From Lotus japonicus (Eukaryota; Streptophyta; Magnoliopsida; Fabales; Fabaceae): a stretch of DNA of 64,000 nt. Positions 3,814 to 58,857 of the stretch are shown here, one piece after another. Made by a program: the position numbers and the translations under genes. Numbering within the stretch: position 1 is the stretch's first letter; every line of letters starts with the position of its first letter. The notes below the pieces were generated by a model, which saw only the letters and a program-made list of their open reading frames with translations, did no database searches and was not told the origin of the DNA. The DNA is taken from assembly GCF_012489685.1 (NCBI RefSeq), contig NC_080046.1, forward strand, positions 47,827,176-47,891,175, read 5' to 3'.

Positions 3814-4190
3814 TATAATTATAAAATAAATACAAGAACATGATGTAGAGAAATCAGTCTCATGTGTGATCTCTTCCCAACAAAGAAATACAAGGAAAAG
3901 CCTACCATTCCCACCCCCTCCTTAATTCTCAAAATAAAACCAGTGCCAATTATAGATCCATAAGAGCGCGTCTAAAGTCTCGCGTCTAACAGATGGAATC
4001 TTTATCTATTCTTTGTTGAACTGCATGGATCATATCTTTTTATTTTTCTTGCTTATAATTTTATTTAATTTTTGTATATTTATTTACCGACAAAAACTTA
4101 TATAAGTTCTTTATATTAAATATAAGAAACTTATTCTAAGTTTAATTTCCCTTATTTATTACGCTCACTTTATTCATATCTCTTTATTAA

Positions 4191-4947
4191 CTAGTATTGG
4201 TCCCGCATCATTCACGGATGAAATAAGAGTATTTTGTCGATATACATCAAACATTTTCGAATTTTTATTTTTTAAATACGTATATCACCTATTTAAGTTT
4301 TTTTCCTAATCCTAGTTACATTCTAATTCCTTTATTTTCTAATTTGTTATGTTTTGAGTCAAATATACCAAAATCATTTTAATCTTCTAGAATTATATAC
4401 AAAAACATAAAAATGCAAATTTTTTGGAGTTAATTTCCGAATCAATCCTTTAAAGCTATTTGATATCAATTTGTTTATGGCACATTTGATATTATTTTGA
4501 ACGTAAGATATTACATTCAATTTTTTTAATTATTTGTTATATAAAAAATAACCCTGATTATTAAGAAAAAGACTTTGTCAGCATACATCTTAATAGTAGA
4601 AAAGTCACAATTGATTTTTATTAATTATTCTAATATTATTAAAAGCCATTAAATGTCAAATTAATATAATAGTTATTTTTGAAAAAAATCACAATTGACT
4701 TTTGTTAATTATTCCAATGTCATTAATTAATAACTATTAAATGCAATATTAATACATTAATTATTTTCAAAAATATGGAATTATTTAATATTTAAATTAC
4801 TAAAAAATCAGAAAATATAGATATGACACTATCTACTTACTAATTATAGTATAAGAGAAAAAACTTATAAAGAAAGACATAAAATGAGGGGGTGATACTT
4901 ATCGAAGTTATCACTTTTTGGTTTCAGAAATAGTATATAGTATAAGA
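4191..4947 (-). mobile_element. Non-autonomous Helitron, copy 1
   Basis: Read on the minus strand, the element starts with TC at 4947 (preceded by A) and ends with CTAG at 4194-4191 (followed by T). A short imperfect hairpin lies about ten bases before the CTAG. A T / A|TC...CTAG|T arrangement is diagnostic for Helitrons. A second copy lies at 15376-16129 with clear similarity along its whole length. It is 757 bp, very AT-rich and contains no ORF, so it must have been moved in trans. Confidence 0.7.
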
Positions 4948-5270
4948 TATGATGAATTGTGGGTAGAGGGATTATGAATATTAATTAGTTTCCAAACTTA
5001 TTAGCCCACCAATCACATTTTTTCAACATACCTCCTACATGGTCCCCTTAGAAAAGTGACCACCAACCTACCATCCTCATTTTTTAAATGTGTCTTCTAC
5101 AAGTAATTCACGTTCCCCCTAGGCCCTAAGGAAAATGGCAACCAACGGTCCCTTCAAATGAGCGGTTATTAGGGTTCCATATGCATTGTTAACCTTATCA
5201 TTATAAGGACAATTATAGAATGAGTTAAGACGAATTTTGTTTTATGCTACTTAGTTTTATCCTCATTTTT
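4948..5270. other. Host flank of the Ty3 element
   Basis: No gene was recognised. It ends at the TATTG target duplication at 5271-5275. Confidence 0.5.
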
Positions 5271-5275
5271 TATTG

Positions 5276-5501
5276 TGTATCGTTATTGGGCTTACAACCT
5301 TTGTAGTCTAATGGGCTTACCGAATTTGTACTATTGGGCCAGGCGACCCATGACCCGAACAGGTCAAAACATCATGATATATAAAGAGGACACCGCCCAT
5401 GCGGTGGGGGATCCAACACTTTTTACTCATTTTGCTACTTTGTCATATTCTACTGTCGTTTACTAATTGCTTAGCCCTGACCGGAGTTCTAGACCGGAAC
5501 A
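5276..5501 (+). repeat. 5' LTR of the Ty3 element
   Basis: It begins TGTATCG and ends GGAACA. A TATA box (TATATAAA, 5378-5385) lies in mid-LTR. It differs from the 3' LTR at about five sites. At 226 bp it is unusually short for a Tat-type element. Confidence 0.9.
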
Positions 5502-5556: not shown

Positions 5557-7044
5557 ATGGTGAATCGATCTAGAGCAAACGGAAGGGACAATCATGTTAA
5601 CCATGAAAATGTTCCGCTCGACATTTTGCAATAGATCATGGCGGATCTAACTGATCTTCGTCAACACAATCAACAACTGCAAACTCAACTTGCTGAGATC
5701 AATCAAGATCGGGGCTTGCATGAGGGCGATCGTAGAATGGCAGAGATGGTGGTAGATTTTCAACCGTTCACAGAAGACATTGCAAACACAACCGTTCCAG
5801 ATAACTTGAAGACTTTGGTTCTTGATTCTTATTACGGAGATTCTGACCCAAAGGATCATTTGGTGTATTTCAACACCAAAATGGTTATTGTGGGCGCTTC
5901 AGATGCTCTGAAGTGTAAAATGCTTCCTTCAACTCTCAAAAAGTCAGCAATGACTTGGTTTACAACGCTTCCACCGCGTTCAATCGCAGGGTTCATGGAT
6001 TTATCGGCGAAATTTCTGTCCCAATTCTCAACTAGTCGCGCCCAGAAAGTGACCCCAACAACTTTATTTAATTTGCAACAGAGGCATAATGAAAGTCTAC
6101 AATCTTTTATGGGGCGTTTCAATCAACTATCAGTGCACTTGGAGGATAAAATGCCAGAAATTTGTATTGCTGCTTTTGAATTGGGCCTTCAATCAGGAAG
6201 TCTGAACAGTAGTTTGAGTCGAAAGCCCGTGGAGACAATGGCGGAGTTGCGAAGTAGGGTACAAGGTTTCATTAGGGAGGAGCAAAGTGATCGCATAAAG
6301 AGAAATCGCAAGAGTGAGGCGGTTACTGGCCAACAACAACAGTCAGATTCGAAAAAGGCGGCGGTTAACGATCAACGTTCGGGCGGAGCAGTTACAAAAG
6401 GAGAGAGAAGTTACAATAATTCAAGTCGTTTTGATAACCGCTCTAATTTTTGAAATCGTGCTCAGCCTTATGGAAATCTTGGTTATGGACAGTCGATGAC
6501 GTGGACCAGAAACCAACAAGACAGGTCGACCCCACTTGCGGTTAATTTAACTGAAGCATTGCACATGTGTTTGGAGGCTAACACAATTCGTTTTCCTAAA
6601 AAACCAAAACGCCCACCAGGCAACGTGGACAGAAGTAAGTGGTGTGAGTATCACCGAATTGCGGGACACAATACAGATGATTGTTTTACCCTAAAGAAAG
6701 AGATTGGGGCTTTGATAAAGGCAGGCTACATGCGTCAACTGGATGGGCGAAAGGAGTCAGAGGGAGCTGGAACCTCAACGAAGCGTGATGACACAGGGAA
6801 AGAGATCGAAGAGTCTGAACCAAAGAAGCAAGTTGGAGGTGAAACTAAAGGGCGCATTCATTCCATATTTGGAGGATTTCAAGGAGGTGGTATGACTAAT
6901 TCTTCAAGAAAAATGTATGTTCATTCCATTAATGCTGTATATGCTAATGATTGGGGAAGCTGGGGAATCAATCAGCCCGATTTACATTTACTGTTAGAGA
7001 TTTTGAGGGAGTTCAGCCTCATGAAGATGATCCCATTGTGGTGA
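5557..7044 (+). pseudogene. gag: Ty3 gag (capsid/nucleocapsid), interrupted
   Basis: Gag forms the particle that packages element RNA in the cytoplasm. The frame opens with ATG at 5557, hits TAG at 5632-5634, reopens at ATG 5638, hits TGA at 6451-6453, and continues in the same frame to 7044. The capsid part (about 5750-6290) matches the plant Retrotrans_gag pattern, with KDHLVYFNTKM, MTWFTTLPP and FLSQF. A C-x2-H-x4-H-x4-C zinc knuckle (CEYHRIAGHNTDDC) lies near 6645-6690. The end overlaps pol, which lies in another frame. Both stops fit single transitions (such as CAG to TAG). The pol frameshift near 6950 could be programmed or a mutation; I cannot tell which. Confidence 0.85.
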
Positions 7045-10000
7045 TGCTAAAAGTTGCTGATTACGAAATTGAGAGGGTACTGTTGGATCAGGGAAGTTCT
7101 GCGGATTTGATATATGGCGATGCATTTGAAAAGTTAGGGCTTACAGAAACTGATTTATTACCATATGATGGGGCGTTAGTTGGCTTCTCAGGTGAGAAAG
7201 TATTTGTTAGAGGGTATGTGGAGCTAAATACCGTGTTTGGTGAAGGTAAAAACAAGAAAGCCTTTGCCATTAAGTTTCTTGTGGTACAGTGTACATCGCC
7301 GTATAATGTGCTTATTGGAAGACCATCGCTCAACAAACTTGGGGCGATTATTTCAACAAGACATTTAACAGTTAAGTATCCATTGGACAAGGGCGGAGTT
7401 GGAACTTTGAAGGCTGATCAGGTGGTTGCTAGGAAATGCTATTCCGACAGTTTCAAGCAGTATGGTCACATGGGAAAGAGAGCAGTGAAGGAGGGACATA
7501 GAGTTTTTGGGGTTGATGTTGATCAAGATGAGGTTAGTTTGGACCCGAGAGAGGGCTTTTCTGATTTCAAGATGACTCCAGAAGAGGAAACAAAGACAGT
7601 GAAAGTGGGCGAAAGGAATATGAAAGTCGGGGTAAACTTAACTCCAATCCAGGAAAGCAGACTGGTGCAACTGTTAGCTGAGAATATGGACTTATTTGCT
7701 TGGAGTTCACGAGATCTTCCAGGAATCGATCTAGAGTTCATTTGCCACAAATTGGCATTGAATCCTGGTGTGGAGCCAATCGTCCAGTTGAAGTGTAAAA
7801 TGGGCGAAGAGAAAGAACTGGCAGTGAAAACAGAAACTAACAAGTTACTTGATGCAGGTTTTATAAGGGAAGTGAAGTATCCAACTTGGTTGGCTAATGT
7901 TGTCATGGTCAAGAAGAGTAATGGAAAGTGGCGAATGTGCACAGATTATACATATTTAAACAAGCATTGTCCAAAGGATTCATATCCACTGCCAAACATA
8001 GATAAATTGGTAGACCGGGCTTCGGGATTTGGAATGTTGAGTTTGATGGACGCGTATTCGAGCTATCATCAAATTCGAATGTACGCGCCAGATGAAGAGA
8101 AAACAACATTTATGACAAACCAAGCAAATTATTGCTATCAAACCATGCCGTTTGGGCTTAAGAATGCACGAGCAACTTATCAGCGGTTGATGGACAGAGT
8201 CTTTGAAAAGCAAGTAGGGCGTAATATGGAAATCTATGTGGATGATATGGTGGTCAAATCAGAGGAAATGGGCGGTCATTGTATGGACTTGGCTGAGGCT
8301 TTTGGAGAAATCAGGAAGCATAACATGCGTTTGAATCCGGAAAAATGCTCTTTTGGAATTCAAAGTGGAAAATTTTTGGGCTTTATGATTACTAGAAGAG
8401 GAATTGAAGTTAATCCCGATAAGTGCAAAGCAATTTTAGACATGCAGAGCCCAACATCAGTGAAAGAGGTACAGAAGCTAACAGGAAGAATTGCGGCTTT
8501 GTCACGATTTTTACCATGCTCAGGGAGTAAGGCGGCTCCGTTCTTTCAGTGTTTGAGGAAGAACAAAGCTTTTCAATGGACAGATGAGTGTGACCAGGCT
8601 TTTCAAACTCTAAAGGAGCATCTGGCTAAGCCTCCCATATTGTCAAAACCAATTCCAGGTATTCCGTTGTCAATTTTCATTTCCATATCAGATAACGCTG
8701 TGAGTTCTGTCTTATTGCAAGAATGTAAAGAGGAGTTGAGAATTATATATTTTGTGAGCCATGCTTTACAAGGGGCTGAGTCAAGGTATCAAAAAATAGA
8801 AAAAGCTGCACTAGCTTTGATTATCACCGCCCGAAAATTGAGGCCTTATTTTCAAGGTTTTCAAATCAAAGTCAAAACTGACTTTCCCCTACGTCAAGTA
8901 CTTCAAAAGCCTGATTTAGCAGGGCGTATGGTTTCTTGGGCTGTCGAATTGTCAGAATTTGGTATAGTGTTTGAGAAGAAGGGACAAATAAAGGCGCATG
9001 GCTTAATAGATTTTGTGAATGAGATGTCTCCAGAAGAAAGAGTATCAAAAGAAGTGGGATGGTTTTTGTCTGTTGATGGTTCATCAAATTTAAAAGAAAG
9101 TGGAGCTGGTATAGTTTTGGAGGGACCGGGCGGAGTAATTATTGAGCAATCTCTCAAGTTTGACTTCAAGGCGAGCAACAATCAAGCGGAATATGAAGCA
9201 ATAATAGCAGGGGTGAGACTTGCCTTGGAGATGAATGTACGTTGTATTGTAATAAAAACTAATTCTCAGCTTGTGGCAAATCAGATAAAGGGAGATTATC
9301 AGGCGAAGGATGTTCAGTTGGCTAAGTATTTGGTAAAGGTTCAAGAATTGTTGAAGCAGATGGACAAGTTTCAGGTAAATCATGTTCCAAGAGAGGAAAA
9401 TACAAGGGCTGACATATTATCTAAATTAGCAAGCACAAAGAAACCAGGTAACAACAAGTCTGTGATTCAAGAGACTTTGAAGGGTCCAAGTGTGAAGGAG
9501 GATGATGTAGTGATGGCAACAGGCGGAGCAACTATAGATTGGATAGATAGAATTCGAATGTGTCTGGAAGTGGATGGATCAGACTTAGCTCTATTTTCAA
9601 AGGATCAGATTCGAGAAGCGAGTTGCTACACAATGATGGGTGGACAACTTTACAAAAGGGGCGTTGGAGTTCCACTGCTAAGATGTGTTAGTAAAGAGGA
9701 TGCAGAAAGAATTATGTTTGAGGTACATGAGGGAGTCTGTGCCAGTCATATAGGGGGAAGATCTTTGGCTTCGAAGGTGTTGAGGGCAGGATTTTATTGG
9801 CCAACTTTAAAGGGTGATTGTATGGAATATGTTAAGAAATGTGAAAAGTGTCAAGTTTTTGCTGATCTTCATAAGGCGCCTCCTGAAGTTTTAAGTTCAA
9901 TGAGTTCTTCATGGCCATTTGCAGTGTGGGGCGTAGATATTTTGGGTCCATTCACTCCAGCGGGGGCACATGTCAAGTTTGTTCTAGTGGTAGTGGATTA

Positions 10001-10763
10001 TTTCACGAAATGGATTGAAGCAGAGTCAATGGCAAAGATCACAGCTGAAAAGGTTAAGAAATTTTATTGGAGGAAGATAATATGCAGGTTTGGAGTGCCA
10101 GCAACCATTGTTTCTGATAATGGAACGCAGTTTACAAGAAGGAAGGTCAGAGATTTTTGTGCAGAGATGGGGATTGAGAACAGGTTCACCTCAGTGGAAC
10201 ACCCACAATCTAATGGGCAGGTTGAAGCAGCAAACAAGGTGATTTTGAATGGTGTGAAGAAGAGATTGGGCGAAGCAAAGGGATTATGGGCTGATGAGTT
10301 GATCACAGTGGTTTGGGCTTACAACACAACACCCCAATCCACTATTGGAGAAACACCTTTCAAGCTTGCTTACGGAGTTGACGCGATGATTCCAGTGGAA
10401 ATACAAGACATGACTTTTCGAGTGGCAACATATGAAGAGAACCAAAATCGAGAAAATGTTCTAGTGGATTTGAATTTGGCAGATGAGGTGAAGGCGGAAG
10501 TTCGTTTAAGGGAGGCTACAGTCAAACAAAGGTCAGAAAGGCGTTATAATACTCGAGTGGTTCCTAGGAGCATGAAAGTGGGCGATTTGGTATTGCGCAG
10601 AAAGGCAAAGAGTTCAACTGATTCAAAGCTGACACCTAACTGGGAAGGTCCATATAGAGTGCTGCGTGATTTGGGACAAGGGGCTTACCACTTGGAGAAG
10701 TTATCTGGGCGCAGGGTTCCAAGAGCATGGAACGCACAACACTTGCGCTACTACTACAGTTAA
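6951..10763 (+). CDS. pol: Ty3 Pol: protease, reverse transcriptase, RNase H, integrase
   Basis: A single open frame of 1270 codons. In order: aspartic protease (DQGSSAD, near 7087); reverse transcriptase with WRMCTDY, MPFGLKN and the catalytic YVDD (near 8236); an RNase H linked to RT; a second RNase H domain (VDGSS...NNQAEYEA, near 9075-9290); integrase with an HHCC zinc finger (about 9725-9860) and DDE residues in WGVDILGP, SDNGTQF and NGQVEAANK (about 9935-10225); then a GPYRV tail. It copies element RNA to DNA and inserts it. Several usual residues are changed: NARATY for NAGATY in RT, TYL for TDL, and TNSQLV for DSQLV in the second RNase H. The start is uncertain because pol is normally made as a fusion with gag. 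Confidence 0.92.
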   Translation: MGKLGNQSARFTFTVRDFEGVQPHEDDPIVVMLKVADYEIERVLLDQGSSADLIYGDAFEKLGLTETDLLPYDGALVGFSGEKVFVRGYVELNTVFGEGKNKKAFAIKFLVVQCTSPYNVLIGRPSLNKLGAIISTRHLTVKYPLDKGGVGTLKADQVVARKCYSDSFKQYGHMGKRAVKEGHRVFGVDVDQDEVSLDPREGFSDFKMTPEEETKTVKVGERNMKVGVNLTPIQESRLVQLLAENMDLFAWSSRDLPGIDLEFICHKLALNPGVEPIVQLKCKMGEEKELAVKTETNKLLDAGFIREVKYPTWLANVVMVKKSNGKWRMCTDYTYLNKHCPKDSYPLPNIDKLVDRASGFGMLSLMDAYSSYHQIRMYAPDEEKTTFMTNQANYCYQTMPFGLKNARATYQRLMDRVFEKQVGRNMEIYVDDMVVKSEEMGGHCMDLAEAFGEIRKHNMRLNPEKCSFGIQSGKFLGFMITRRGIEVNPDKCKAILDMQSPTSVKEVQKLTGRIAALSRFLPCSGSKAAPFFQCLRKNKAFQWTDECDQAFQTLKEHLAKPPILSKPIPGIPLSIFISISDNAVSSVLLQECKEELRIIYFVSHALQGAESRYQKIEKAALALIITARKLRPYFQGFQIKVKTDFPLRQVLQKPDLAGRMVSWAVELSEFGIVFEKKGQIKAHGLIDFVNEMSPEERVSKEVGWFLSVDGSSNLKESGAGIVLEGPGGVIIEQSLKFDFKASNNQAEYEAIIAGVRLALEMNVRCIVIKTNSQLVANQIKGDYQAKDVQLAKYLVKVQELLKQMDKFQVNHVPREENTRADILSKLASTKKPGNNKSVIQETLKGPSVKEDDVVMATGGATIDWIDRIRMCLEVDGSDLALFSKDQIREASCYTMMGGQLYKRGVGVPLLRCVSKEDAERIMFEVHEGVCASHIGGRSLASKVLRAGFYWPTLKGDCMEYVKKCEKCQVFADLHKAPPEVLSSMSSSWPFAVWGVDILGPFTPAGAHVKFVLVVVDYFTKWIEAESMAKITAEKVKKFYWRKIICRFGVPATIVSDNGTQFTRRKVRDFCAEMGIENRFTSVEHPQSNGQVEAANKVILNGVKKRLGEAKGLWADELITVVWAYNTTPQSTIGETPFKLAYGVDAMIPVEIQDMTFRVATYEENQNRENVLVDLNLADEVKAEVRLREATVKQRSERRYNTRVVPRSMKVGDLVLRRKAKSSTDSKLTPNWEGPYRVLRDLGQGAYHLEKLSGRRVPRAWNAQHLRYYYS

Positions 10764-11746
10764 AGTTGTGTTCTGAAAAATTTCGCTTCAGTGTGTTTTA
10801 TTCTGTTCAAAGACTACGTCGTGTTTATTTGTTTGGTGGTTCCTGTACTTCTTTAAGTGTCAAGACTATGTGGTTGTTTAGTAAGACTCAGTAGCATGCA
10901 CTCTTTTCTCTACCTATTAGGGAGAGTTTTTAATGAGGCATGATGTTAAATTTTAATGAAAAAACAAGTATGCACTCTTTTCTCTACCCCGGGCGGGAGA
11001 GTTTTTAACGAGGCATAACCTTTAAAAATTTCTTGAGTGCTTTGTTAGCATTTAAGTTACTTTTCAACTTAGGTCTATCAATTGGGCGATTCTAGACAAT
11101 TGAGAAAGAGTAAGTCTCTTAAAACTAGAGCATTTGGCCACGAATTCATAAGCAAAGCCTTAACTTGGATTAAGCTTGTCCAACTTAAGCACAAAGCCTC
11201 CAAGCGAGCAAATTTCTGTATCAGAACAATTTGCGCTTCTGATCCCTTTATTTTGATTCAATTCAAAATTGCAAAGGCCTTATGAATTCAAAGAATAGTT
11301 GTTAAAACTGTGAAAGTTTCTTTTGCGTGAAAAGCTTGAATGAACCCATCGTTCTGTGATTAAAAAGAATCCGGGTGAAAGGTATCTATGCTGTGAATTA
11401 TTTTCATTTGTTCATATTATTGATATGTTGCTTAGAGATTTTTCGTTTGTTCATATTATTGATATATTGTTTAAGGTTTAAAAAAAAAGCAAAATAGCTT
11501 TGGAGTTAATCATTATCACAAGAAAAAGTGATGAGTCTAGGTGAGGAAGGGCGATGGAGAGTTAAGGTTTAGCAATAACAATGAGATTTTCAACATAAGA
11601 ACGCTTGTATTAAAATAAAGGGGAGGTGGTACGCCTTAAACAGACCGGAGATAATTGAAAAGTAGGAAAGCAAGAAGCTAAATCATCCACTTGGTATAAG
11701 ACCAAGTAGGAAACAAAACATCATTCTCTATTTTTCTGGCGAAGAG
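10764..11746 (+). other. 3' non-coding region of the Ty3 element
   Basis: No sense-strand gene was recognised. It holds a 75-bp tandem duplication (10896-11035) and a small direct repeat of TTTGTTCATATTATTGATAT (near 11406 and 11449). Confidence 0.6.
10896..11035 (+). repeat. 75-bp tandem repeat, two units
   Basis: Units start at 10896 and 10971, each with TGCACTCTTTTCTCTACC followed by GGGAGAGTTTTTAA and GAGGCAT. Motifs of this kind (CACTCTTTT, GGAGAGTTTTT, AACGAGGCA) recur in 3' regions of plant LTR retrotransposons. Confidence 0.8.
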
Positions 11747-13612
11747 TTAGTGGTTTTCTCCTTCACCCTCCTTGTCATTGGCATCTTCACCTTTGTTGTC
11801 ATTTCTTTCTTCTTCTTCTTCTTCTTCTTCTTCTTCTTCTTCTTCTTCTTCTTCCTCAAAGTTGGGCAGAACCAAATTTCCGTCAATGATCCTGGCATAA
11901 GGATCAATACCATCAGTGTTGATAGGCAGGTTCGGATTGAGGAACAGAATTTGCTCTTTGGCCTTGTTAAAGCCAGCTTCAAGTTGGGAGAGGATGGAGG
12001 CCTTCAAGGAGGTGGTTTTGGTGGAAAGGTTGGCAACAGATTCCTTCAAATTTGTATTCTCAGAGGTGAAAAGATTTGCCTCTTCCTTCATCTTCTTATT
12101 CTCTTCTTCTTTCGCCTTCATCAAGGCTTGGTTTTCTTCTAAAGTCTTCTTCAATTTTTCAAGTTTCAAAGCCAGGTCCGCGGCTTTTTTCTCGTTGACT
12201 TTGTTAGATTTTTCCAACAGCTTCATGGTCGATTTCAATTTGGCGTTCTCTTTTTCCTTGTCTTCAAGCTTCTTGGCCGTAGAAAGCCCATCGAAGCCAC
12301 TGGATTCAAGCTCTATCATTTTTGAAATCGCAGCAATTTCCAAGCTCTTGGTCATAACAGCTTGACAGGCTTCCTGAAGCCCAATTTTTCTTATTTTCTC
12401 TCTGTCAGCCTCGAACACAAGGTTCGTGTCCACCAGGGTGTTGAAATTGATACGGGAATCCCATAAAGAAGTGACTTCTTCTGCAGTCATGTCATCAAAC
12501 TCTTTAAGTTCATACTTCCATGAAGGGGACGGGGCGCTGGAAGATCCATATTGGTTGGCACCTTTGGCTACAAACTTTTTCATTGAAGACTGAATGCTAG
12601 TCTTCTCCGTGGGCTTCTCAGAATCTAGATTTCTTTTTCTTCTTTTCTGGGCGGGATTCTTGTCAGTTTCAGAATGGTTTCCTTCAGGTTCAGTCAAAGT
12701 CTTGGCGGGAGAGGGCTTGTTCTTCAACGCCTGCTGTTCACGACGGAAGCGGAGAATGTCATCTTCAGAGAGGCGTGCCATCCTAGCTGCAATGAAATTA
12801 AGAAGTAGAAAGTCATAAATCTTTGGGGCGAAAGAAATGGGGGGAGAGATATAAAAGGAGATTCTTACCAACAAATCTGGCTAAGTCTCTCTTTTTAAAC
12901 GCTTCATAAAAGTCATAGAGGTTTAAATTAATTGTTGACAAGAAATCAACTTCATGTTTTTCATCAATAGTTAAGGAAGATTCAGGTACTTTGTAAATAA
13001 GTTCGGGCTTATCAGTCCAGTAAAATGGGAACCGAGGAGTGCCGTCATCATAGTAGAAAACGTCTTTACTTTTCTCAGATTCCCTCAACTTGAAAAATTT
13101 CGCTTTCCAGTGTTTGTAGTTGCTCCTAAACAGAGTGAAAAGCCCACTTCCTCTAGCGGAAGATAGAGAAATGTACTCACCCTTCACTTTCATCCCAGAG
13201 GTTTCAAAAAAGGAGAAGCCCTAAACTCAAAAGCCCTAAGATAAGCCCAGCCATTCGCAGATAGCTGAGTTGGGGCGATATTCATTAGGGATAGGCTGGA
13301 ACAGGTGAAGTCTGAAAGGGGAAGTTTGTATTCGAGGTCAAGAAATATGGTTTGGAAAAAATATGTGTGGTTTCTTCCACTAGAGTCAGGTTTTCCAAAA
13401 CAACAAGGTTCATCAGGGGCACATGCGATTATGTCTAAGTGAGCATCATTTCCGTCAGCCCTAAAAGTGTATTTGGTTAGCAGGTCCATTACTTTAGGAA
13501 TGGTACGGAAATCACTGAATCTAGTTGTGATTTTCCGTGAAACCCATAGGGAATCAACAGCCGTGGGGTTTTTACGGTTCTTAGGTGCCTTACGAGAATT
13601 TTTTGCAACCAT
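11747..13612 (-). pseudogene. Antisense gene (aORF) of the Ty3 element, spliced, one frameshift
   Basis: A minus-strand gene lies between pol and the 3' LTR. Coding starts at ATG 13612. Its N-terminal part resembles the plant 'putative gypsy type transposon' domain (Transposase_28-like; SLSSARG, LFRSNYKHWKAKFF). An 82-bp intron (12868-12787) has clean borders, GTTG|GTAAGAAT and TTGCAG|CTAGG, and keeps the frame. The last exon encodes about 345 residues: a basic and Ser/Pro-rich stretch, a long Lys/Glu coiled coil, and an acidic poly-Glu tail. A one-base frameshift near 13215-13225 separates the first coding block (13612-13190) from the next, so this copy is probably inactive. Function is unknown; a structural or regulatory role is only conjecture. 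Confidence 0.75.
11806..11853. repeat. (TTC)n microsatellite coding poly-Glu in the aORF
   Basis: TTC repeats on the plus strand read GAA/GAG on the minus strand and make the acidic C-terminal run of the antisense protein. The repeat stays in the coding phase. Confidence 0.9.
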
Positions 13613-13627
13613 TTTTGAGAATCTACC

Positions 13628-13842
13628 TGAAATTAAAAGGAAAAGGGGGTTATCAGGGTGGAGAAGTTTGTGAATGAGCCGTTTTATGGGTATGTTAGGC
13701 AGTTAGGTCTCAGAATTCTGGGTAAAAGAGTTTGTGTGGAAAAAATTTGATGTGATTTTGAATCCAAGAGTAGAAATATGAGAAGATGGGATGTGAACAT
13801 TAAAGTTGATAAACAAATAGTTGAAGAGGACGAGGATTTACC
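13628..13842 (-). other. Probable 5' UTR intron of the aORF
   Basis: On the minus strand a donor CTCCTG|GTAAATCC lies near 13842 and an acceptor TTTCAG|GTAGATTC near 13628, just before the coding ATG at 13612. This is a prediction from splice motifs only. Confidence 0.4.
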
Positions 13843-14000
13843 AGGAGAAAAAGAGTAGAGCTTTGAAGAAGACGCGGGGTACTCTTGTAAAATTCTCAGA
13901 GGTTCTTCTGTTTTCCAAAAGTAGGCAGCAAGCACTCGTTGGAATTTTGTGAGGAAATTACTGGGGAGATTGAAAGTGGTAAGAAATGAGGAGAGGTGGT

Positions 14001-14010
14001 GCTTTTATAG
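14001..14010 (-). promoter_or_regulatory. TATA box of the antisense gene
   Basis: The minus strand reads GCTATAAAAGC-like sequence (CTATAAAAGC), a strong TATA box about 390 bp before the aORF start codon. It lies inside the element and outside the LTR, so the antisense transcript would not depend on the LTR promoter. Confidence 0.55.
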
Positions 14011-14606
14011 TCATAACTAGGAGTAGTCGCGTGGTTTCACATAAATTTTTAGGCTTTAAGAGAGGAGATGTGTCCTTTGCTGGACCGGTAAAATTTCGTT
14101 GGTGAAACGTCTCGTGGAAGTAAACAGTCGCGTTTCTTTAGGTTTGAATGTAATAATTACTTTTTTACGAATGCTGTTTGAAAGGGTTAAGATAGTGAGT
14201 ATTAAATGCTGAGTGGAAAGGAATTGTGAGAGTCGTCAGGTTTTGTGCCATCACGTGTTAGGGAAGGTAAATTCCAGTTTCGAAATATTTGCATATCTGG
14301 TTTGTGATTATGATAGGGACATGACACTGAAGCGACAGGCATAGACTATGGTCAGAATCGTAGAGAAGAAAGCAGGCAAGAAAGCATCAGCAAATGACAG
14401 GGGCGTACAAATAATGACAAGGGCGAAGCTTTCTTCATTTGTTATAAGCTATTTTTTCTTTACATGTAACAATTATCTAAATTTAGTGTAATTTTAGTGT
14501 TATTGTCTTTGTACCTTGAGGGGCTTTGAGTATTGTATTGTGGGCTTACGTCAAAGACACACTACATCTCAAAATGGCTTTTAAGATTAGGTGTCTTGTG
14601 GGTTTG
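14011..14606 (+). other. 3' end of the Ty3 internal region
   Basis: No gene was recognised. It contains the region upstream of the antisense TATA box and ends at the 3' LTR. No clear purine-rich polypurine tract stands directly before the LTR. Confidence 0.5.
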
Positions 14607-14832
14607 TGTACCGTTATTGGGCTTACAACCTTTGTAGTCGAATGGGCTTACCGAATTTGTACTATTGGGTCAGGCGACCCATGACCCGAACGGGTCAAAA
14701 CATCATGATATATAAAGAGGACATCGCCCATGCGGTGGGGGATCCAACACTTTTTACTCATTTTGCTACTTTGTCATATTCTACTGTCGTTTACTAATTG
14801 CTTAGCCCTGACCGGAGTTCTAGACCGGAACA
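14607..14832 (+). repeat. 3' LTR of the Ty3 element
   Basis: TGTACCG...GGAACA, 226 bp, with TATATAAA at 14709-14716. It is followed by the TATTG target duplication (14833-14837). Confidence 0.9.
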
Positions 14833-15134: not shown

Positions 15135-15375
15135 AACTAGAACGGGGCCAAATTGACATGGCGTATATAAGCTAAAAAGTTATAAAATATACATATAGCA
15201 ATAGTTTTTTTACTCACATATAGCACTAGTTAAAAGTAAATAACTCAAGCAATTGGTTAATATCTCATATATATATAAATCGAATTTCTTACTATGAAAC
15301 ATTTATACTCCTTTTTTATTTTAGGGTATTCTTAAGATTATAAATTTGACAGCATAAATATATAATTAATATAAA

Positions 15376-16129
15376 CTAGTATTGATCTCGTATCATGTAC
15401 GAAGGGAATAAGAGTATTTTGTCAGCATACATCAGATCTATTTATATTTCCTCCATGTTTTTCTTTTTTAAATGTGTATACCACGTGTTTAAGTTTTTTT
15501 TTTCTAAACCTAGTTACATTCTAATTCATTTTTTCCTAATTTTTTATGTTTTGAATCAATATACCAAAACCATTTTAATCTTCTAAATGTATATAAGAAA
15601 ATATAAAATACAATTTTTTGAGTTAATTTCTAAATTAATTCTTTAATACTATTCAATCAATTTTTTTATGACATGGTTGATATCATTTTAAACGTAAGAT
15701 ATTACATTCAATTTTTTTATTTTATAATATAAAAAATAGTAATAATCATTAAAAAAAAGACTTTGTTAACATACATCTTAATGGTAGAAAAGTCACAACT
15801 TACTTTTATTAATTATTCTAATATCATTAAAAATTATTAAATGTTAAATTAATACAATAGTTATTTTTAAAAAAAATCAAAATTGACTTTTGTTAATTAT
15901 TCTAATGTCATTAATAACTATTAAATTTAATATTAATAATTAATTATTTTCAAAAGTATGAAATTATTTAATATTTAAATCACTAAAAATCAGAAAATAT
16001 AAATATGTCATAGTCTACCTACTAATTATAGTATGAAAGAAAAAACATTTACAGATAAGCATAGAAAGATGAGGTGAAACTTGTCGGAGTTGCCACTTTT
16101 TGGTTTCGAAAATAGAATATAGTATAAAA
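15376..16129 (-). mobile_element. Non-autonomous Helitron, copy 2
   Basis: Homologue of 4191-4947 over its full length. On the minus strand it ends with CTAG (15379-15376) followed by T; the 5' TC has changed to TT but the preceding A is kept. It is 754 bp with no ORF. Confidence 0.65.
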
Positions 16130-16740
16130 TATAATTTTATGCAAAAAAGTGTTTCTTTTGTAAGTATTGATGAATTCATATTTTAAAACGTAACTATAAA
16201 TAAAGGGAAAATGAGGTTCAATATTTTTTTAGTACGTTAAATTGCTATCGCAATTTCAACTCGAATATTGTGAAGGTCAAAGGTCTTCCCAATAGTATGA
16301 CTCCTGCAGATTATGACGGCTAAAACGACCTCAATTTATGTCTATAAATGTACAAAATGACGGTTTGAACCCTTGTAATTCACATTAGTTACAAAAAAAT
16401 TATACAATTACGATTTTGACAGCTCTAATTAACATCAAAGAGGAAACATTTTATATAAGGACGGTTGAAACCAGGGGCAGATGCACCTTATAGAGTATGG
16501 GGTAAATTGCCCCCACAATTTTTTTGATGTTTCCGATCCTTAATACTATGTGTTGTTTGTATTATTTATTTTATAAAAAAAATATTTTCTTACTACTATA
16601 TGTAGGAGAATTATTTGCTCTCACTACTTATTTATATGTATGTTTATTTCCCCCACTACTTATTTTATCAATATTTTTAAATTTAAATTAATTTAATTAT
16701 AGATTATAAACGTGGAAAATAAAGTATAATTAAAAATTAC
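16130..16740. other. Intergenic sequence with a possible hAT end
   Basis: CAGGGGCAGATGCACC near 16475 resembles the CAGGGGCGTATC terminus of the hAT at 17965, but no matching right end was seen. Otherwise there is no gene. Confidence 0.35.
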
Positions 16741-19604: not shown

Positions 19605-22142
19605 TCAAATATTATCGAAGACTTCTTGATACACTACGTTGCGTGTAGTGTTAGATACAACTCCTTCGTCATCAATGATGAACATCTTCAACATTTTTCT
19701 AGATTTAACTCTAGAAAGTGCAACATATAGCTGCCCGTGAGTAAAGACAGGCCTTGACAAATACAGTCCAACATGAGATAAAGATTGTCCCTGACTTTTA
19801 TTTATAGTCATCACAAAACATAAAGTAACAGAGAATTGTCTGCGCTGGAATTTGAATGAAATGTCAGAATTAGATGGAGTTAAGCTCATCCTTGGAATAA
19901 ATGTTGTTTCACCCATCTTGTTTCCATTTAAAACAGTAGCAACAATTATATATTTAGTCAATGCGTTGATTATCATTCGAGTGCCATTACACAACCCTGC
20001 AGCTTGGTCTATGTTTCGAATGAGCATGATAGGGACACCAACTTTCAGTTTAATTGCATGGTTTGGTATTTCAGAGCATTTGAAATCATTTAAGAATTCA
20101 GATGTAAATCATTCCGCATTGTCACCTGAATCTTCGTCTGACTTGCACGGAGTATCACAGCTCAAATATTCTGTTTCATCACCAGGAATCATTGCTAACA
20201 TAAAGTTGTTGATTTCCTCTAAACTTTCAAGTGTTGGTGCAAGGATCGCTCTTTCTTGAAAGAATGAACTTTTTTGCAAATTATGTGCAAGTTTCGGATA
20301 TGCAAAATTAACTAATTCAAGCAACGGTTCCTTACACTGTTCAATAAGAAGATCTGGAGGAATCTCAATAAGTGTTTCTTCCTCATCAATCGTTTTAACT
20401 GTACCATCTCCCACTTGAAGCAACCAATCTGCAAACTCTTTTATTTCTGCTGCTGAAGAAGTTGACGTAGCATTTTGCAATCTCATATTAACAGTCAACT
20501 TCATTACCTTGCAATGCTTCCACAGATATGAAGAATTGATAGCTGAACCGACAATTTCAGAACGGCTTCCTTTGGAAATAACTGGAAGTATTTGTCTAAA
20601 GTCGCCTCCCAGTACCACAACTTTACCTCCGAATGGAATGTCATAACCATAGGTAGACTGAGTCTTCATAATGTCATTTAGAGATCTGTCTAAAGCTTCA
20701 AAACAATGTTTGTTTAACATAGGTGCCTCATCCCAAATAATTAGGCTTGCTTTTTTCAATAATTCAGCTTTTGGGGAACTTTGACGAAGATTACAGGTTG
20801 ATATCTCATTTATTGAAATAGGAATAGAAAACCTTGAATGAGCAGTTCTATCTCCAGGTAACAATAGCGATGCAATTCCGCTAGATGCGACATTTAAGAC
20901 GATAAGACCCCTTGAACGCAAAGCAACATATAATATATTCCCAACAAATGTTTTTCTAGTTCCTCCAAAACCATATAGAAAAAGGAATCAATTGTTATCA
21001 GACAAAACATCGTCCAAAACATTCTTATAAAAAATCTCTTGCTCTGAAGTAAGAGAACTGACCAATTCATCACGAATCTTTACCATTTCAGCCCTATTAT
21101 AATTCAACTCATCTGCAACGAATCTATCTTCAAAATTATGAATTTCTGAAAATTTAGGGTATGGTAAACATGGAAATTCCTTGAGTAACCTTTCATTGCC
21201 TTGCAATATTTTTTCAATCTCAATCATACATAAGTTCTGTAATCCTTCATCCTCTATACGAAGATCTGAAGGAAATTAAATGAAATAAGCAAAATAAATC
21301 AAATAAGAAAATTAAATTAAATGAGAAATATTGAGTTTTAATTTTTCCATTTTGAGAAAGAAAATGAATTTACACAACTTAAATTTTTCCTTCTAATAAG
21401 ACTCGCCATATTTTGATAATGTCAAATTTGAAATATTTTTAAAAAAATTGTATTATTTTAAACGTGATACTCAGGTATAAAACTTTAAAAAAAAACTGGA
21501 CACATTTATTTAGACAATAGAATCTCTGATATAGATTTTTTTTTAACCTGCAACAAATAACAGTGAGATTTGTAGGTGAATCTTTGTTTTTTTCTATTGG
21601 GAAAACTAATTATAGGTTAATTTGAGTATAAGAACAAAATATCTCTATAAAAATTAGAAAATAGATATGGTATATAATTATGATATAGTAGCTGTCCAAT
21701 CTCTTAGGTTGTGGCGTACTTTTTAAAATACGGTAAATATTGTTGGGTTCAATTAACATATGGAAATAAATAGTAATAGCCATGGACAATTATACATGTG
21801 AAAAAATAAACGCATACTAATTCATAAGGGAGAAAAAAGTAAATATTTGTCATCAGCATTCTAGTAAATAATTTCCTTAGCTGAGATCCGGAACCAAGTT
21901 CACTTGCAATTGAAATTCCATCAACATACTCCCGGTCATCCTCCATTAATCCCATCGCTTCGCATGCATCGCAGAATGTGGGATAAACAACACCCTTAAC
22001 AGTTCTTATGCTTTTAAAACTGTCACAATCTTTTTGCCTAGTTAATAAAACCCGCATGTAGTAATTTTCTCCCATTCCAGGAGCAATAAATTGCAATCGA
22101 CCAAGAGAAAGGCCTCTTTTCCTAGGAACCCATATTGTTGAT
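19605..22142 (-). pseudogene. Helitron PIF1-type helicase, disabled
   Basis: The Helitron helicase unwinds DNA for rolling-circle transposition. Blocks on the minus strand in order: the pre-helicase region with GENYYMRVLL and YPTFCDACEAMGLMEDD (22142-21860); TSEQEIFYKNVLD (about 21030); Walker A (about 20965); IIWDEAPM (Walker B, about 20730); GGKVVVLGGDFRQILPVI; and the C-terminal INKSQGQSL and HGQLYVALSRV motifs (about 19810-19720). Lesions: TGA at 20988-20990, TGA at 20109-20111, and Walker A reads GTRKT where GTGKT is expected (codon 20955-20957). The 21250-21850 interval has no frame and may be an intron or insertion. Confidence 0.88.
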
Positions 22143-23055: not shown

Positions 23056-25110
23056 TGTGACACCCCGAATTTAATTAAGGGCATTAGAGTCTTTTGATGG
23101 AGATTTACTTTTGGATTATTCTATTTAGGGATAAGTAAGGGAAAATATATATTAATATGTTTAAAACGTGGTTTTTTTTGGGTTACATAAAACGTGGGTT
23201 TTGGTTGCTTAGCAGATATAAATAGTTTAAATGCTTCAAGTGGTTTAAAAATCGGTTATCGATAAATTAAAAAGGAGTTGTTTTAAATTTGAAAGTTTGT
23301 TTTCAGTGTAGAGAGGGAGAGTAAGCCACAATGACCAGGTACATACATGCGTGTCGTTACTGAACTGTGAGGAGAAAATGGTGCTGAGAGGAGTGGTTTT
23401 ATTTTATAAATAGCACGCATTCTTTTGGAGAAATTCATTGGTTGTTTCTGCTTTCCTCTAGAGAATTCGATTCAGAGTGCACATGGATACTACCTCCGAA
23501 GGTAAGGGTAGTGCCGGTTTAGAGTGTCATGTATCTGTGTATTTTAATTTTTGTACTGTGACCTGAACAATTGATGCCATGCCTTTCCATGTGCTAATAA
23601 TCTTTCTTTTTCTCTCAAACACTCACAGAATTTTAATCAGGCTACTATACCTTAGGACTATGGTGGAACTGGAACCTGTACTGTTTTCATGTCTAAAATA
23701 CGTGAACTGTTATGAGATTGGGTAACATGCCTGCCTTGTGTTTGTTGCTGCCTTGAGAAAATTCTATAACCTCTTATATTAATATAATTAATTTCGTTTG
23801 AGCATATACATGACACTGTGTATAATAGTTTGAAATCCTTGCTGAAGTAGTCTTTTTCTTCTTGTGCTAGTTGTGTCCCTATCTGTTTTGTGTGCTTGTA
23901 GTTTGCCTTGATAAGGTTAGACCTGCAACAGTTTTTGAATCTTTTCTAAAATGGAATCACTTTGATAATTAATAACTTGTAATGTATTTGTTTCATTTGG
24001 AGAGGAATATAAGGCTGTAGTTTGATCAGTGTTGCATGAGAATCTTTCCTTTATGTATGCTGTCCGTGGGCCTATGCCTTCTATATGAAAAATAAGTGAT
24101 ACAGATAGATGAAGGTATATACTTGTCTGAGAGTGTGGTTTAACCTTTGAATTGTTGTTTCATGTATTTTCACTGTCTTCTGATATCCCTGCCTCTAAAC
24201 CGTCTATATTGTTCTCTGCCATAGTTAATTGGATCTTATCTTGTGATTGGAAGACATACTGTATTTGGTTGTTGATAATTGGACAGAGGGCAGATGCATA
24301 TTAGGGTTGATTATGAGATGTGTTGACGTCCTGATTAAAGTGGCCATGACGTTATGAAATTGTCCCATTGATTGTCCCGCCCCTCTTGTGGCGTTTGAAA
24401 CCGGTTGTTGGTAGTTGCATATAGTATTTAGGAATTGAACCTCTACTTGACTAACTTTTGTCGTGAATTTAATTCACTTGAGTTTGGCTACATGACTTAC
24501 TTGGTAGACCTAGGTTTTGACTTGAAATTATTGTTTAATCTTGCATGGGCACTAACCCTTTCTTGTTTGATATTTGTTATTTGCGCGTCTATCGCCATAG
24601 ATAAAGACGATGTTGCACCGCGTGAAGTATAATTTTTTTCACAAGGACTCGCCAGACGCGTGGGAGGTGGACCACGACACGCGCAAGGCAACATACCGTG
24701 GTTTGTTTGCAGTCACTACTATTTTTGCTGATGGACGTCGCTCGTCGGACTATCACATCGGGGAATAAGAGATCTCCTTGCCCCCACCAGATGAGCCTCA
24801 AGAGGAAGCACCTGTCGAGCAAATGGTGGAGACATCAGAGGAGGAGGAACCGGAGAAGGAAACCATCCCTGAGATGGTGGAAAGGATGATCAACGAGAAG
24901 ATAGAGTCGTTTGGGGAGAAGTTGCACAACTTCTTCCCGGAGATTCTGGCTTCTCATCAGAATTAAAGAACCCCGTTGGTGTCCGTGGCGTTTATCTTTT
25001 CTTTATTTTCCTTATAGTTAGTTGTTTTTCCTTAGCACGGGATGTGCGCTAGAAATAATCGTTGGAGTTTTATTAGTTTTAGTTTAACCACTATTTTATT
25101 GGTGAAACAT
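23056..25110 (+). repeat. Chromovirus-type LTR, left arm of an inverted pair
   Basis: It begins TGTGACACCCCGAATTTAAT, matching the start of the minus-strand LTR at 27265. A TATA box TATAAATA lies at 23405-23412, and a splice-donor-like GAAG|GTAAGG near 23502. It contains a 118-codon ORF region (24611-24966). Similarity to the right arm is lower in the promoter half and high from about 24500 to 25110. The outer side abuts the Helitron, and no pol remains there. Confidence 0.7.
24611..24966 (+). pseudogene. Small acidic ORF inside the left LTR
   Basis: The frame starts MLHRVKYNFFHKD and has one internal stop near 24770 (after YHIGE). It continues to an acidic segment (SEEEEPEKETIPEMVERMIN) and stops at 24966. 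The right arm carries the same ORF. I do not recognise the family. The charged C-terminus may form a helix; function is unknown. A splice-acceptor-like CGCCATAG precedes it at about 24600. Confidence 0.55.
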
Positions 25111-25192
25111 TTCATTTTCATTGAATAATAAGTCTAGAAGTATTTTGGAAAATTATTGAGAAGTTTCTGTTTATTTTATAATTTTTCGTTCG
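25111..25192. other. Spacer between the two inverted LTR arms
   Basis: About 82 bp, AT-rich, between ATTGGTGAAAC on the left and GTTTCACCAAT on the right. It may be the true end of one LTR that is missing from the other. Confidence 0.6.
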
Positions 25193-27265
25193 GTTTCACC
25201 AATAAAATAGTGCTTAAACTAAAACCAATAAAACTCCAACTATTAATTCTAGCGCACACCCCGTGCTAATGAAAAGCAACTAACAATGTGGAAAATAAAG
25301 AAACATCGTCACGGACACCAACAGGGTTTTTAATTCTGACGAAGTTACACTGCTCCCCGAAGGGCTCCATCTTCTCGTTGATCATCCTTTCCACCATCTC
25401 AGGGATGGTCTCCTCTTCCAGGTCTTCCTCTGGCTCCTCCTCCTCTGATGTCTCCACCATTTGCTCGACATGTACTTCCTCCTCAGACTCATCTGGTGGG
25501 GTCAAGGAGAACTCCAACTCCACGATGTGATAGTCTGAAGCACGACGTACATCAGCGAATGTAGTAGTGACTGCAAACGAACCACGGTAGGTTGCCTTGC
25601 ACGTGTCGTGGTCCACCTCCCACGCGTCAGGCAAGTCCTTGTGAAAAAGATTATACTTCACGCGGTGCAACATCTTGATCTAATGGCGAAAAGGCGCCCA
25701 AATAACAAATATCAAATAAGAAAGGGTTAGTGTCCATGCAAGATTAAGCAATAAATTCAAGCCAGAACATAGGTCTACAAGGTAAGTCAGGTATAAAGTT
25801 AGTCGAATATCAAATAGAGGTTTAATTCCTAAGAACTAAATGCAGCTACCAACAACCGGTTCAAACGCCACTGAGGGCGGGACAATCAATGAGACAACTG
25901 TCATTACCTTGTCACTTCAATCAGGACGTCAACACGTCCTGTAATCAACCCTAGTATACAACTGCCCTCTTTCCAAGCATTAGAAACCAAATAGAGTATT
26001 GACAGTAAGATCCAATATATCACCAATTTACTATGGGAGAGAACAACACAGTCAATTGAGAGGCAATAGGTAAACACGATAAAAAATAATTCATTTAGCA
26101 AGATTCAGTAAATTTAATCTAACACAGATAGATGGTAAGAGGGAACCAATAACAGAAACAGTATCAAACTTGAGAAATAATTAGAAAATGAGGTGTTATC
26201 AGGCATGGTAATACTTGAGGGGGAGTGGCACTCATAACTTAAAATTTCACCAAAAAAAAAGAAAGAGGCCTAGCCTCGATTTGATTTAACCTGAGAGCAA
26301 CAAATATCAAACCTTGCAACCTATCTCACTATCATTAAGAATATTCTTAAATAGAACAGATCATGACCAATAGAATAATAACACTCAAAATTTAAGCATG
26401 TTCACACACGGTTCTTTCTAAGTTGTACTCGCGGTCCTAGTAGAATGATTTCATTCAAGCAAAGCACATAAGACAAACAAAACTAAGGAATTTGTGACAT
26501 ATATCTCGAGTTTTCTACCCAGTAAATAAAAGTTCACGTTCTGGACATAAGCAGTAAGGTTACAATTAAAACAAAAGGTGAGATAGCATAACCATATATA
26601 TATCAAATTGATTTAGAATATAAAGGTTCTAGCACGTATAGATACGACAGTAACAATTCAAATAGCAGTACAGAATTTAATCACATAGATAGACACAAAC
26701 TCTAGACCGGCACCACCCTCACTTTCGGAGGTAGGATCGCATGTACACTCTGGACCAAATTTTCAGAAAGAAGGAGAGATGGTCGTTGAATTAATCTCAA
26801 GGAGAAAAATGCTATATATAAGCTACTGAAAGACAACTAAAAGAAACAACCTCTTAACATCACCCTTTTCTGCAGCAACAACATGGTTGTCTCCCTTCTT
26901 TTATGTTAAGTTTAAATTTTATTCCAATAGCAATGTATCTAGTCATTTGGTTTACCCTCATTCTAATCTGGAACCAACTTTCAAATTTAAAACCACTTTA
27001 TCACTCTTCTCTGAAACCAATCCCTCGCTTCATTTTTTTGTTTAAAACAAATTAAAACATAATAAAATGAATTCTGTTTCCATTTAACAACTCAACTGAC
27101 AACATGAAGCACTATGAAACCGATCATATATGATAAATGACCAAAAACTCCACTTTCAAGCAACCAATTTTCCCTTCTAGAGAACAGTTTAAATATTATT
27201 TATTTAATAACAGTAATAACCCTCAAAAGACTCTAATGCCTTTGAATTAAATTCGAGGTCTCACA
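25193..27265 (-). repeat. Chromovirus 3' LTR, right arm of the inverted pair
   Basis: On the minus strand it starts TGTGAGACCTCG at 27265, just after a G-rich tract (AGGGGGTAG) and the end of a chromovirus integrase, so it is a 3' LTR. TATATATA lies at 26813-26820. It carries the intact copy of the acidic ORF (25673-25266). At about 2.07 kb it is long. Confidence 0.75.
25266..25673 (-). CDS. Small acidic ORF inside the right LTR, unknown function
   Basis: An open frame of 135 codons lies fully inside the chromovirus LTR. Order of features: MLHRVKYNLFHKD; DAWEVDHDTCKATYRGSF; a short Ser/Asp-rich region; then a strongly acidic segment with Glu runs (EEEEPEEDLEEE) and VERMINEKMEPFGEQ. The left-arm homologue ends in LHNFFPEILASHQN, while here the last 30 residues come from another frame, so a small frameshift near the end is likely. 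The first 100 residues align closely between arms, which suggests the ORF belonged to the family. I do not recognise the protein. Confidence 0.5.
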   Translation of the reverse strand: MLHRVKYNLFHKDLPDAWEVDHDTCKATYRGSFAVTTTFADVRRASDYHIVELEFSLTPPDESEEEVHVEQMVETSEEEEPEEDLEEETIPEMVERMINEKMEPFGEQCNFVRIKNPVGVRDDVSLFSTLLVAFH

Positions 27266-37534: not shown

Positions 37535-37829
37535 TGCCTTCTTTCTTATTTTGTATTGTGTTTTTTTATGGTTATTTTAAAATTATTTATTCGTATGAAA
37601 AGGAGAAAAATCAATTTTATTTTTCTGATAAATAGGTTATTTTGTCTAAGTGTTAATTTATGTTTTAAATTGTGTTTTTTTTTTGTCGTAGATTTTTTTA
37701 TGAGTGTATTTTTTATTTATTTATGTTGTTTGTCCTTGTTTATCTAATTGATGATTGGATTTATTCATTTGATATAACAATTTTATTGTGCTTTACAAAT
37801 AGAAGTAATATTTTTTTGTAAGATCTTAT

Positions 37830-40510: not shown

Positions 40511-40582
40511 GAACATCAACGCACTGCCAAAGTCAATTTTGCTCCTACAACAAAGACCTCAGTTGTTGCTCAACACAATATT

Positions 40583-42019: not shown

Positions 42020-42219
42020 GTGTTACCAGCTCCAGAAATTGTCACACGACACTCCATTCGCTCTCGTTGTGTACCAGCTCATCTCCATGACTACCAGCTT
42101 ACTGTTCCACCTTCTTTAGCTGCCATCAATTCTTCCTTCAAGGCTTCATCCAAAGGTATCACACATCCCTTGTCCTCTGTCATTTCTTATGCATCTTTGT
42201 CTCCCAAACATTTTGCTTT

Positions 42220-42752
42220 TAAATATTAAGTTTGTCTTTTTGAGGTTCATAACTCATACGAAATAAATAATAATAAATTTATTTAAAATAATTTGAAGTT
42301 AATAGTATAAGTCTATATTAAATTATCACTATAAACCTTGGTTTCTTCAGAGATGATCGATTACATGAAAATGATGTCAACTATATTAAATTGTACAAAA
42401 TCATATTTTGCTATAAGAGTAGTGTCACTTGTAACCTCTTCAATTTTTGAGATGTTCATTCAAGTAATCTTATATTTGTGCTTTGCGACTCTATATTTTC
42501 TAGCAGATGCTTGAACCATAAATTGTTGAATCGCATAAACTTGTCATACACATAGTGTGTCACTAAACAGTAGCATTTGAAAAACTACAATTTAAAAAAT
42601 TCACTTAATTATGGTAACAATAAATAGCTTGGTTTAGGTACCATGAAAGTGGGGAAAACAAAGAAATTTAATACCTTTTCAATGATTAAGAGAAGTTCAA
42701 TACTGTGAACACCTAATTTTGTCATACCTTAATAATATTAAAGTTAGTCCAA

Positions 42753-42786
<34 letters not shown>

Positions 42787-45276: not shown

Positions 45277-45288
45277 TATTAGTTATTA

Positions 45289-45554: not shown

Positions 45555-45556
45555 TA

Positions 45557-49020: not shown

Positions 49021-49027
49021 AATGTTA

Positions 49028-55355: not shown

Positions 55356-55359
55356 TAAT

Positions 55360-58850: not shown

Positions 58851-58857
58851 GTTAACA

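What the first reader, a model, noticed from the sequence alone, without database searches (positions are those of the whole stretch)
11747..14010. Spliced antisense gene with its own promoter inside a Ty3 retrotransposon
Seen: minus-strand coding blocks that keep frame across an 82-bp GT-AG intron, a second predicted 5' UTR intron and a TATA box at 14001-14010. The product has a plant gypsy-associated N-terminal domain, a long coiled coil and a poly-Glu tail. Known: extra antisense ORFs occur in Tat-lineage elements. Inference: it is transcribed from an internal antisense promoter, independent of the LTRs, and could limit or assist the sense transcript.
Basis: partly seen in the sequence, partly recalled or inferred. 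Interest (0 to 1): 0.75.

Follow-up and report, generated by a model that had tools for sequence, protein, structure and literature searches.

The report
Broken antisense gene in plant retrotransposon
A jumping gene, probably from a legume genome, carries a backwards, intron-containing accessory gene of a kind already known from this family of plant retrotransposons, and in this copy the gene is broken by a small deletion.

Summary
The minus-strand gene is real and not a chance reading frame, but it is of a known kind: the antisense TRP28 (Transposase_28) accessory gene reported in 97% of recently active Retand clusters (Tat-lineage Ty3 retrotransposons of plants). The in-frame 82-bp GT-AG intron (12787-12868) is confirmed: both Lotus japonicus RefSeq models that hold both exons join them at this point, and a 60%-identical relative keeps the donor. 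The TATA box exists but is weak evidence (the hexamer occurs in 40% of shuffled upstream regions). An internal antisense promoter with a nuclear product is already reported for maize Grande gene23 (seen in a review only), and homologues of the bean antisense ORF were counted in Lotus in 2014. Possibly new is only the gene structure: the TRP28 exon and the long-helix exon belong to one spliced gene, whereas the survey I read used an ORF finder. No RNA data and no DNA of other copies could be obtained.

The parts
5274..5501 (+). 5' LTR, the part that aligns with the 3' LTR; possibly truncated at its 5' end
   Evidence: 228 bp, 5 differences to 14605-14832; no target-site duplication seen (my reading)
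5638..7044 (+). gag frame with an in-frame stop at 6451-6453
   Evidence: Retrotrans_gag 50.2 bits in 5638-6453; stops at 6451 and 7042 in this frame
6951..10763 (+). pol, 1270 codons open: protease motif, RT, RNase H, second RNase H-like domain, integrase
   Evidence: Pfam; protease motif at 7086
14605..14832 (+). 3' LTR, the part that aligns with the 5' LTR
14004..14009 (-). TATAAA of the proposed antisense promoter
   Evidence: only TATAAA in the 992 nt upstream; expected at least once in 39.8% of shuffles
13627..13841 (-). possible 5' UTR intron (GT...AG, 215 bp)
   Evidence: sequence only; would remove the sole upstream ATG at 13800
13190..13612 (-). antisense exon 1, first frame (140 codons), start of the TRP28 domain
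   Evidence: 95% identical to P0013 over 92% of the query; Transposase_28 15.6 bits
13218..13225 (-). place of the out-of-frame deletion: 8 nt stand where two relatives have 15 residues (net loss 37 nt)
12869..13193 (-). antisense exon 1, second frame, after the break, up to the splice donor
   Evidence: tblastn P0002 84.5%, P0003 90% identity
12787..12868 (-). 82-bp GT-AG intron
   Evidence: same join in P0002 and P0003; donor kept in P0014
11747..12786 (-). antisense exon 2, with stop codon
   Evidence: 11 relatives at 55-92% identity
12629..12646 (-). basic cluster, possible nuclear localisation signal
   Evidence: matched in 8 of the 9 sequences that cover it
11939..12289 (-). long helix, residues 165-281 of the exon 2 product
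   Evidence: AlphaFold2 model with 12 sequences; block means from residue 171 to 270 are 91-97
11807..11854 (-). 16-copy trinucleotide array coding the glutamate run
11163..11255 (-). stretch matching the last 31 residues of P0002: an alternative last exon, or a deletion in that other copy
   Evidence: 83.9% identity; not decided

Best explanation
This is the antisense TRP28 accessory gene of a Retand-type Ty3 retrotransposon, in a decayed copy. In working copies a promoter between the gene and the 3' LTR would drive an antisense transcript; splicing joins a TRP28-containing first exon to a second exon coding for a basic cluster, a long helix and an acidic tail. The product most likely enters the nucleus, forms oligomers through its helix and acts in trans on element DNA or chromatin, regulating transcription or integration. 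The antisense arrangement lets the gene keep an intron and its own promoter through the RNA stage, because an antisense intron is not spliced out of the sense genomic RNA. In this copy an out-of-frame deletion in the TRP28 core prevents the full protein. Shown here: exon structure, conservation of the intron position, conserved protein in relatives, the break. Inferred: promoter, transcription, nuclear role, oligomers, action in trans. The confidence given is for the identity (antisense Retand-type accessory gene, broken copy); for the nuclear trans-acting role alone I would say about 0.5.
For: Frame far longer than in 1000 shuffles. Exon 2 relatives at 55-92% identity, among them whole-length ones at 55-60% (P0004-P0006) without stops. 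Both RefSeq models holding both exons (P0002, P0003) join them at this intron; P0012 has an exon 2 unit beginning at the same point, consistent with the acceptor; P0014 reads into the intron at the same donor and phase. P0013 and P0014 read through the broken place with 15 residues each and score 25.6 and 33.6 bits for PF04195, cutoff 26.2. Pol domain order has a second RNase H-like domain between RNase H and integrase, stated for Ogre and Retand in PMC6317226 (passages). Antisense TRP28 ORFs in 97% of recently active Retand clusters, PMC11963269 (parts 1-3 of 5). Grande gene23: promoter upstream of the gene, nuclear product, PMC7264820 (parts 1-2 of 3).
Against: No transcript evidence. This copy scores below the PF04195 cutoff, and P0013 is also just below it (25.6 against 26.2). 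TATAAA is expected by chance in 40% of shuffles. The heptad test is marginal. P0009 lacks a match to the basic-cluster pattern. RefSeq models may be predictions without read support. No RT tree was built. The alignable LTR (228 bp) is shorter than the published Retand range (315-1,194 bp).
Confidence: 0.82

Rival explanations
1. The antisense transcript acts mainly as RNA: it pairs with the 3' part of the sense genomic RNA and feeds small-RNA silencing that limits the element; the protein matters little.
For: The antisense gene lies wholly inside the sense transcription unit. PMC7264820 names dsRNA control as possible alongside a protein role. This copy cannot make the full protein but could still be transcribed.
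Against: The protein is conserved in whole-length relatives at 55-60% identity, which an RNA-only role does not explain.
Confidence: 0.15
2. The product in this subfamily is a shortened protein of 454 residues that starts at the ATG at 13193, after the break, without the TRP28 domain.
For: That frame is open through the splice to the stop. P0002 and P0003, the two RefSeq models reaching this part of exon 1, start at the same methionine.
Against: In P0013 this methionine is internal, and in P0014 it is absent, so the ancestral protein was longer. Gene-model programs choose such starts when upstream frames are broken. The ATG lies downstream of the first frame's start and overlaps its stop, so a ribosome would have to re-start.
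Confidence: 0.08
3. Programmed frameshift: the two exon 1 frames are joined by ribosome slipping at the T run before 13205.
For: The frames overlap and the overlap holds a run of six T.
Against: P0013 and P0014 read through without a shift and hold 15 residues that this copy lacks; reading across the break does not raise the domain score (14.6 bits).
Confidence: 0.02
4. Chance frames or a captured host gene rather than an element gene.
For: Some relatives bear host-like names (CROWDED NUCLEI 3-like, WEB family).
Against: Frame length far beyond 1000 shuffles; several distinct relatives rather than one; the domain and place are those published for Retand elements. The names may reflect long helices only (inference).
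Confidence: 0.02

Closest known systems
Antisense TRP28 (PF04195) ORFs of Retand elements, with a cluster 'Lotus japonicus 1' (Vicient 2025, PMC11963269; parts 1-3 of 5 and passages)
   Same: Place between pol and 3' LTR, antisense, TRP28-type domain, pol-to-LTR stretch of 3841 nt within the published 2,933 to about 6,560
   Different: Alignable LTR 228 bp against 378 for that cluster and a published range of 315-1,194; here an intron is seen; the paper predicted ORFs with ORF Finder and its text has no word starting with 'intron'; this copy's domain is broken
Maize Grande gene23 (Gomez-Orte 2013; not held, seen only through PMC7264820)
   Same: Antisense accessory gene between pol and 3' LTR with a promoter of its own and a nuclear product
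   Different: Expression was shown there, not here; direct protein comparison not made; whether gene23 has an intron is unknown to me
Bean antisense ORF2 in 15 Ty3 families such as pvRetro13 (PMC4093653, passages)
   Same: Legume Ty3 elements, antisense ORF between pol and 3' LTR, some with an SMC-type match; 226 TBLASTN hits reported in Lotus japonicus
   Different: Listed as ORFs; the passages I saw name no intron and no TRP28; sequences not compared here
HTLV-1 HBZ (works like, not a relative; recalled and named in PMC11963269)
   Same: Antisense gene of a retroelement with a nuclear regulatory product
   Different: Its promoter lies in the 3' LTR (PMC7264820, for HTLV); no homology claimed; analogy only

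Membership tests
Retand lineage (Tat, Ty3 retrotransposons) | Second RNase H domain between RNase H and integrase (shared with Ogre, PMC6317226) | tested here: met
   RT_RNaseH to residue 670, RVT_3 708-826, integrase 914-1085; taking RVT_3 as the aRH domain is recalled
Retand lineage (Tat, Ty3 retrotransposons) | Antisense ORF between pol and 3' LTR | tested here: met
Retand lineage (Tat, Ty3 retrotransposons) | TRP28 domain (PF04195) in that ORF at the curated cutoff of 26.2 bits | tested here: not met
   15.6 bits in this copy, whose domain core is deleted; relatives P0013 25.6 and P0014 33.6, so met by one of two relatives and just missed by the other
Retand lineage (Tat, Ty3 retrotransposons) | Clusters with Retand in an RT tree | not tested
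   no reference RT set was fetched
Retand lineage (Tat, Ty3 retrotransposons) | Sizes in the published range (LTR 315-1,194; internal 7,380-12,869; pol to LTR 2,933 to about 6,560 bp) | tested here: inconclusive
   internal 9103 and pol-to-LTR 3841 fit; alignable LTR of 228 bp does not, and may be a truncation
Antisense accessory gene with its own promoter (gene23 type) | Antisense transcript from an internal promoter | not testable with these tools
   TATAAA at 14009-14004 only, expected in 40% of shuffles
Antisense accessory gene with its own promoter (gene23 type) | Nuclear product | not testable with these tools
   basic cluster in 8 of 9 sequences covering it is suggestive only

The most novel reading that the evidence does not exclude
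In a subfamily of these Lotus-type Retand elements the spliced antisense gene has shed its TRP28 domain and persists as a 454-residue nuclear, long-helix protein that starts at an internal ATG: two annotated relatives start at the same methionine as the longest intact spliced frame of this copy.
Probability: 0.08. Interest if true: 0.4.

Novelty: new member of a known kind. Interest (0 to 1): 0.22.

Why it matters
The kind of gene is known; its function is an open question. Two details are useful. The intron joins a TRP28 exon to a long-helix exon, so antisense 'TRP28' and 'SMC-like' ORFs listed apart in surveys may be exons of one gene. And an antisense gene is a natural way for a retrotransposon to keep an intron and a private promoter through its RNA stage. 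Both points can be tested with existing RNA-seq.

Tried and rejected
Programmed frameshift or stop-restart at 13190-13205: dropped once two relatives read through with 15 residues that this copy lacks (the tail of my third row in the alignment is misplaced by the aligner and was not used). Chance frames: rejected by shuffles. Host gene capture: unlikely. TRP28 fold: the model is too poor (mean pLDDT 37.5), so no fold search was run on it; none was run on the exon 2 helix either. DNA of other copies: three viral-contig scans found no relative of the antisense gene; a fourth, with a piece of pol, gave four loci at 24-31% identity, not used. The window's genome could not be reached: eight of eight tries did not complete, so dN/dS was not computed. 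No Rfam family reaches its gathering score in the window. Two key papers are not held. In the eight paper searches that ran, judged from their listings, I saw no report of a spliced antisense Retand gene; subscription papers are mostly not in that library.

Full report
The element. The window holds a Ty3 retrotransposon whose LTRs align over 228 bp (5274-5501 and 14605-14832, 5 differences). It has a primer-binding-like stretch after the 5' LTR, a gag frame with an in-frame stop at 6451 and an open pol of 1270 codons, 6951-10763, in another frame. Pol has RT, RNase H, a second RNase H-like domain and integrase in that order, which PMC6317226 gives for the Ogre and Retand clades (passages). I saw no target-site duplication and no clear polypurine tract before 14605 (my reading), so the 5' LTR may be truncated. 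Five of the 11 proteins found with exon 2 are Lotus japonicus RefSeq models; the other six come from a source that names no organism. The window is probably from Lotus japonicus or a near relative; this is inference.

The antisense gene. The minus strand between pol and the 3' LTR has a stop-to-stop frame of 377 codons; in 1000 dinucleotide shuffles the longest frame averaged 98 codons and never exceeded 208. An 82-bp GT-AG intron lies at 12787-12868; removing it joins 13193-12869 to 12786-11747 into 454 codons without a stop. Of the 14 proteins found in three searches, two hold both exons, P0002 and P0003, and both join them at this point. P0012 is a fusion of two exon 2-like units, the second of which begins at the same point, consistent with the acceptor. 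P0014, 60% identical in exon 1, reads into the intron at the same donor and phase. Whether the RefSeq models rest on reads or on prediction could not be seen. The last 31 residues of P0002 match 11255-11163, either an alternative last exon or a deletion in that copy.

The break. P0013 (95% identical over 92% of the first frame) and P0014 (60%) read through and have 15 residues where the window has 8 nt, a net loss of 37 nt. The lost piece is in the core of the Transposase_28 domain: this copy scores 15.6 bits, P0013 25.6, P0014 33.6, cutoff 26.2; reading across the break does not help (14.6). I first considered a programmed frameshift; the relatives speak against it. P0013 itself ends before the donor, so it is intact at this place but is not a complete gene.

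The protein. Exon 2 aligns with 11 proteins at 55-92% identity, some of them fragments. A basic cluster is matched in 8 of the 9 sequences that cover it; P0009 misses the pattern. The exon 2 model has one helix over residues 165-281, mostly at high confidence, with mean pLDDT 66.8 for the whole. The heptad signal is marginal, 544 of 10000 permutations being as strong, and the strongest period in the scan was 3.2, not 3.5, so 'coiled coil' is likely but not shown. The tail is acidic; its glutamate run is a perfect 16-copy trinucleotide array. The TRP28 model has a mean pLDDT of 37.5 and was not used.

The promoter. TATAAA at 14009-14004 is the only such hexamer in the 992 nt upstream of the start; it occurs at least once in 39.8% of shuffles. 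A possible 5' UTR intron, 13841-13627, would remove the only ATG in the assumed leader. These fit an internal promoter but do not show one.

What is known. Read: parts 1-3 of 5 of PMC11963269 and passages; parts 1-2 of 3 of PMC7264820. Passages only: PMC6317226, PMC4093653, PMC3091746, PMC9289625. The first reports antisense coding regions in all its recently active Retand clusters and TRP28 in 97%, one cluster being from Lotus japonicus. The second reports that Grande gene23 is transcribed from a promoter upstream of it, antisense to gag-pol, with a nuclear product, suggests protein or dsRNA roles, and asks that spliced antisense transcripts be looked for. PMC4093653 reports 15 bean families with an antisense ORF2 and 226 TBLASTN hits in Lotus. 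So the kind, and its internal promoter, are known. I saw no report of an intron in such a gene in the searches listed under Tried and rejected, but Gomez-Orte 2013 and Steinbauerova 2011 could not be read.

How it works. An antisense gene can keep an intron and a private promoter through the RNA stage because its splice sites do not exist in the sense genomic RNA; antisense-intron retrotransposition markers use this (recalled). The likely product is a nuclear protein acting on element DNA or chromatin in trans (inference from gene23, the basic cluster and the published DNA-binding prediction for TRP28). A dsRNA role of the transcript is possible alongside. In this copy only the transcript and, at best, shortened products remain.

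Verdict. Real feature, known kind, decayed copy. Interest is low to moderate because of the intron structure.

Noticed in passing
4185-4953 and 15370-16135: A direct repeat of about 770 bp, 82% identical, stands on both sides of the retrotransposon: the flanks of an older element or a repeat cluster into which it went.
   Followed up: partly
19605-20921 (-) and 34374-34847 (-): Pieces of PIF1-type helicase genes (PF05970 at 251 bits; Pif1_2B at 37 and 75 bits), probably Helitron remnants (inference).
   Followed up: partly
24489-25793: Large imperfect inverted repeat made of four arm pairs, 87-91% complementary.
   Followed up: no
45277-49499 and 55080-59229: Long direct repeats about 9.8 kb apart, most listed copies 97-100% identical: a tandem duplication or very long terminal repeats.
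   Followed up: no
37829-39034 and 42219-43434, with 39803-42019 (+) between: Direct repeats about 4.4 kb apart, 94-97% identical, around a gag-like frame and an integrase frame with GAG-pre-integrase and SH3_retrovirus domains: a Copia-type element, shorter than a full one.
   Followed up: partly
50920-52761 (+): 613-codon frame with an RRM and DUF4283, lying between the 9.8-kb-spaced repeats.
   Followed up: partly
60415-61326 (-): 303-codon frame with no Pfam match at 0.001; its start recalls phytochrome-interacting factors (recalled, not tested).
   Followed up: no
11163-11255 (-): The tail of RefSeq model P0002 matches here, 83.9% over 31 residues: alternative last exon of the antisense gene or a deletion in that other copy.
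   Followed up: partly
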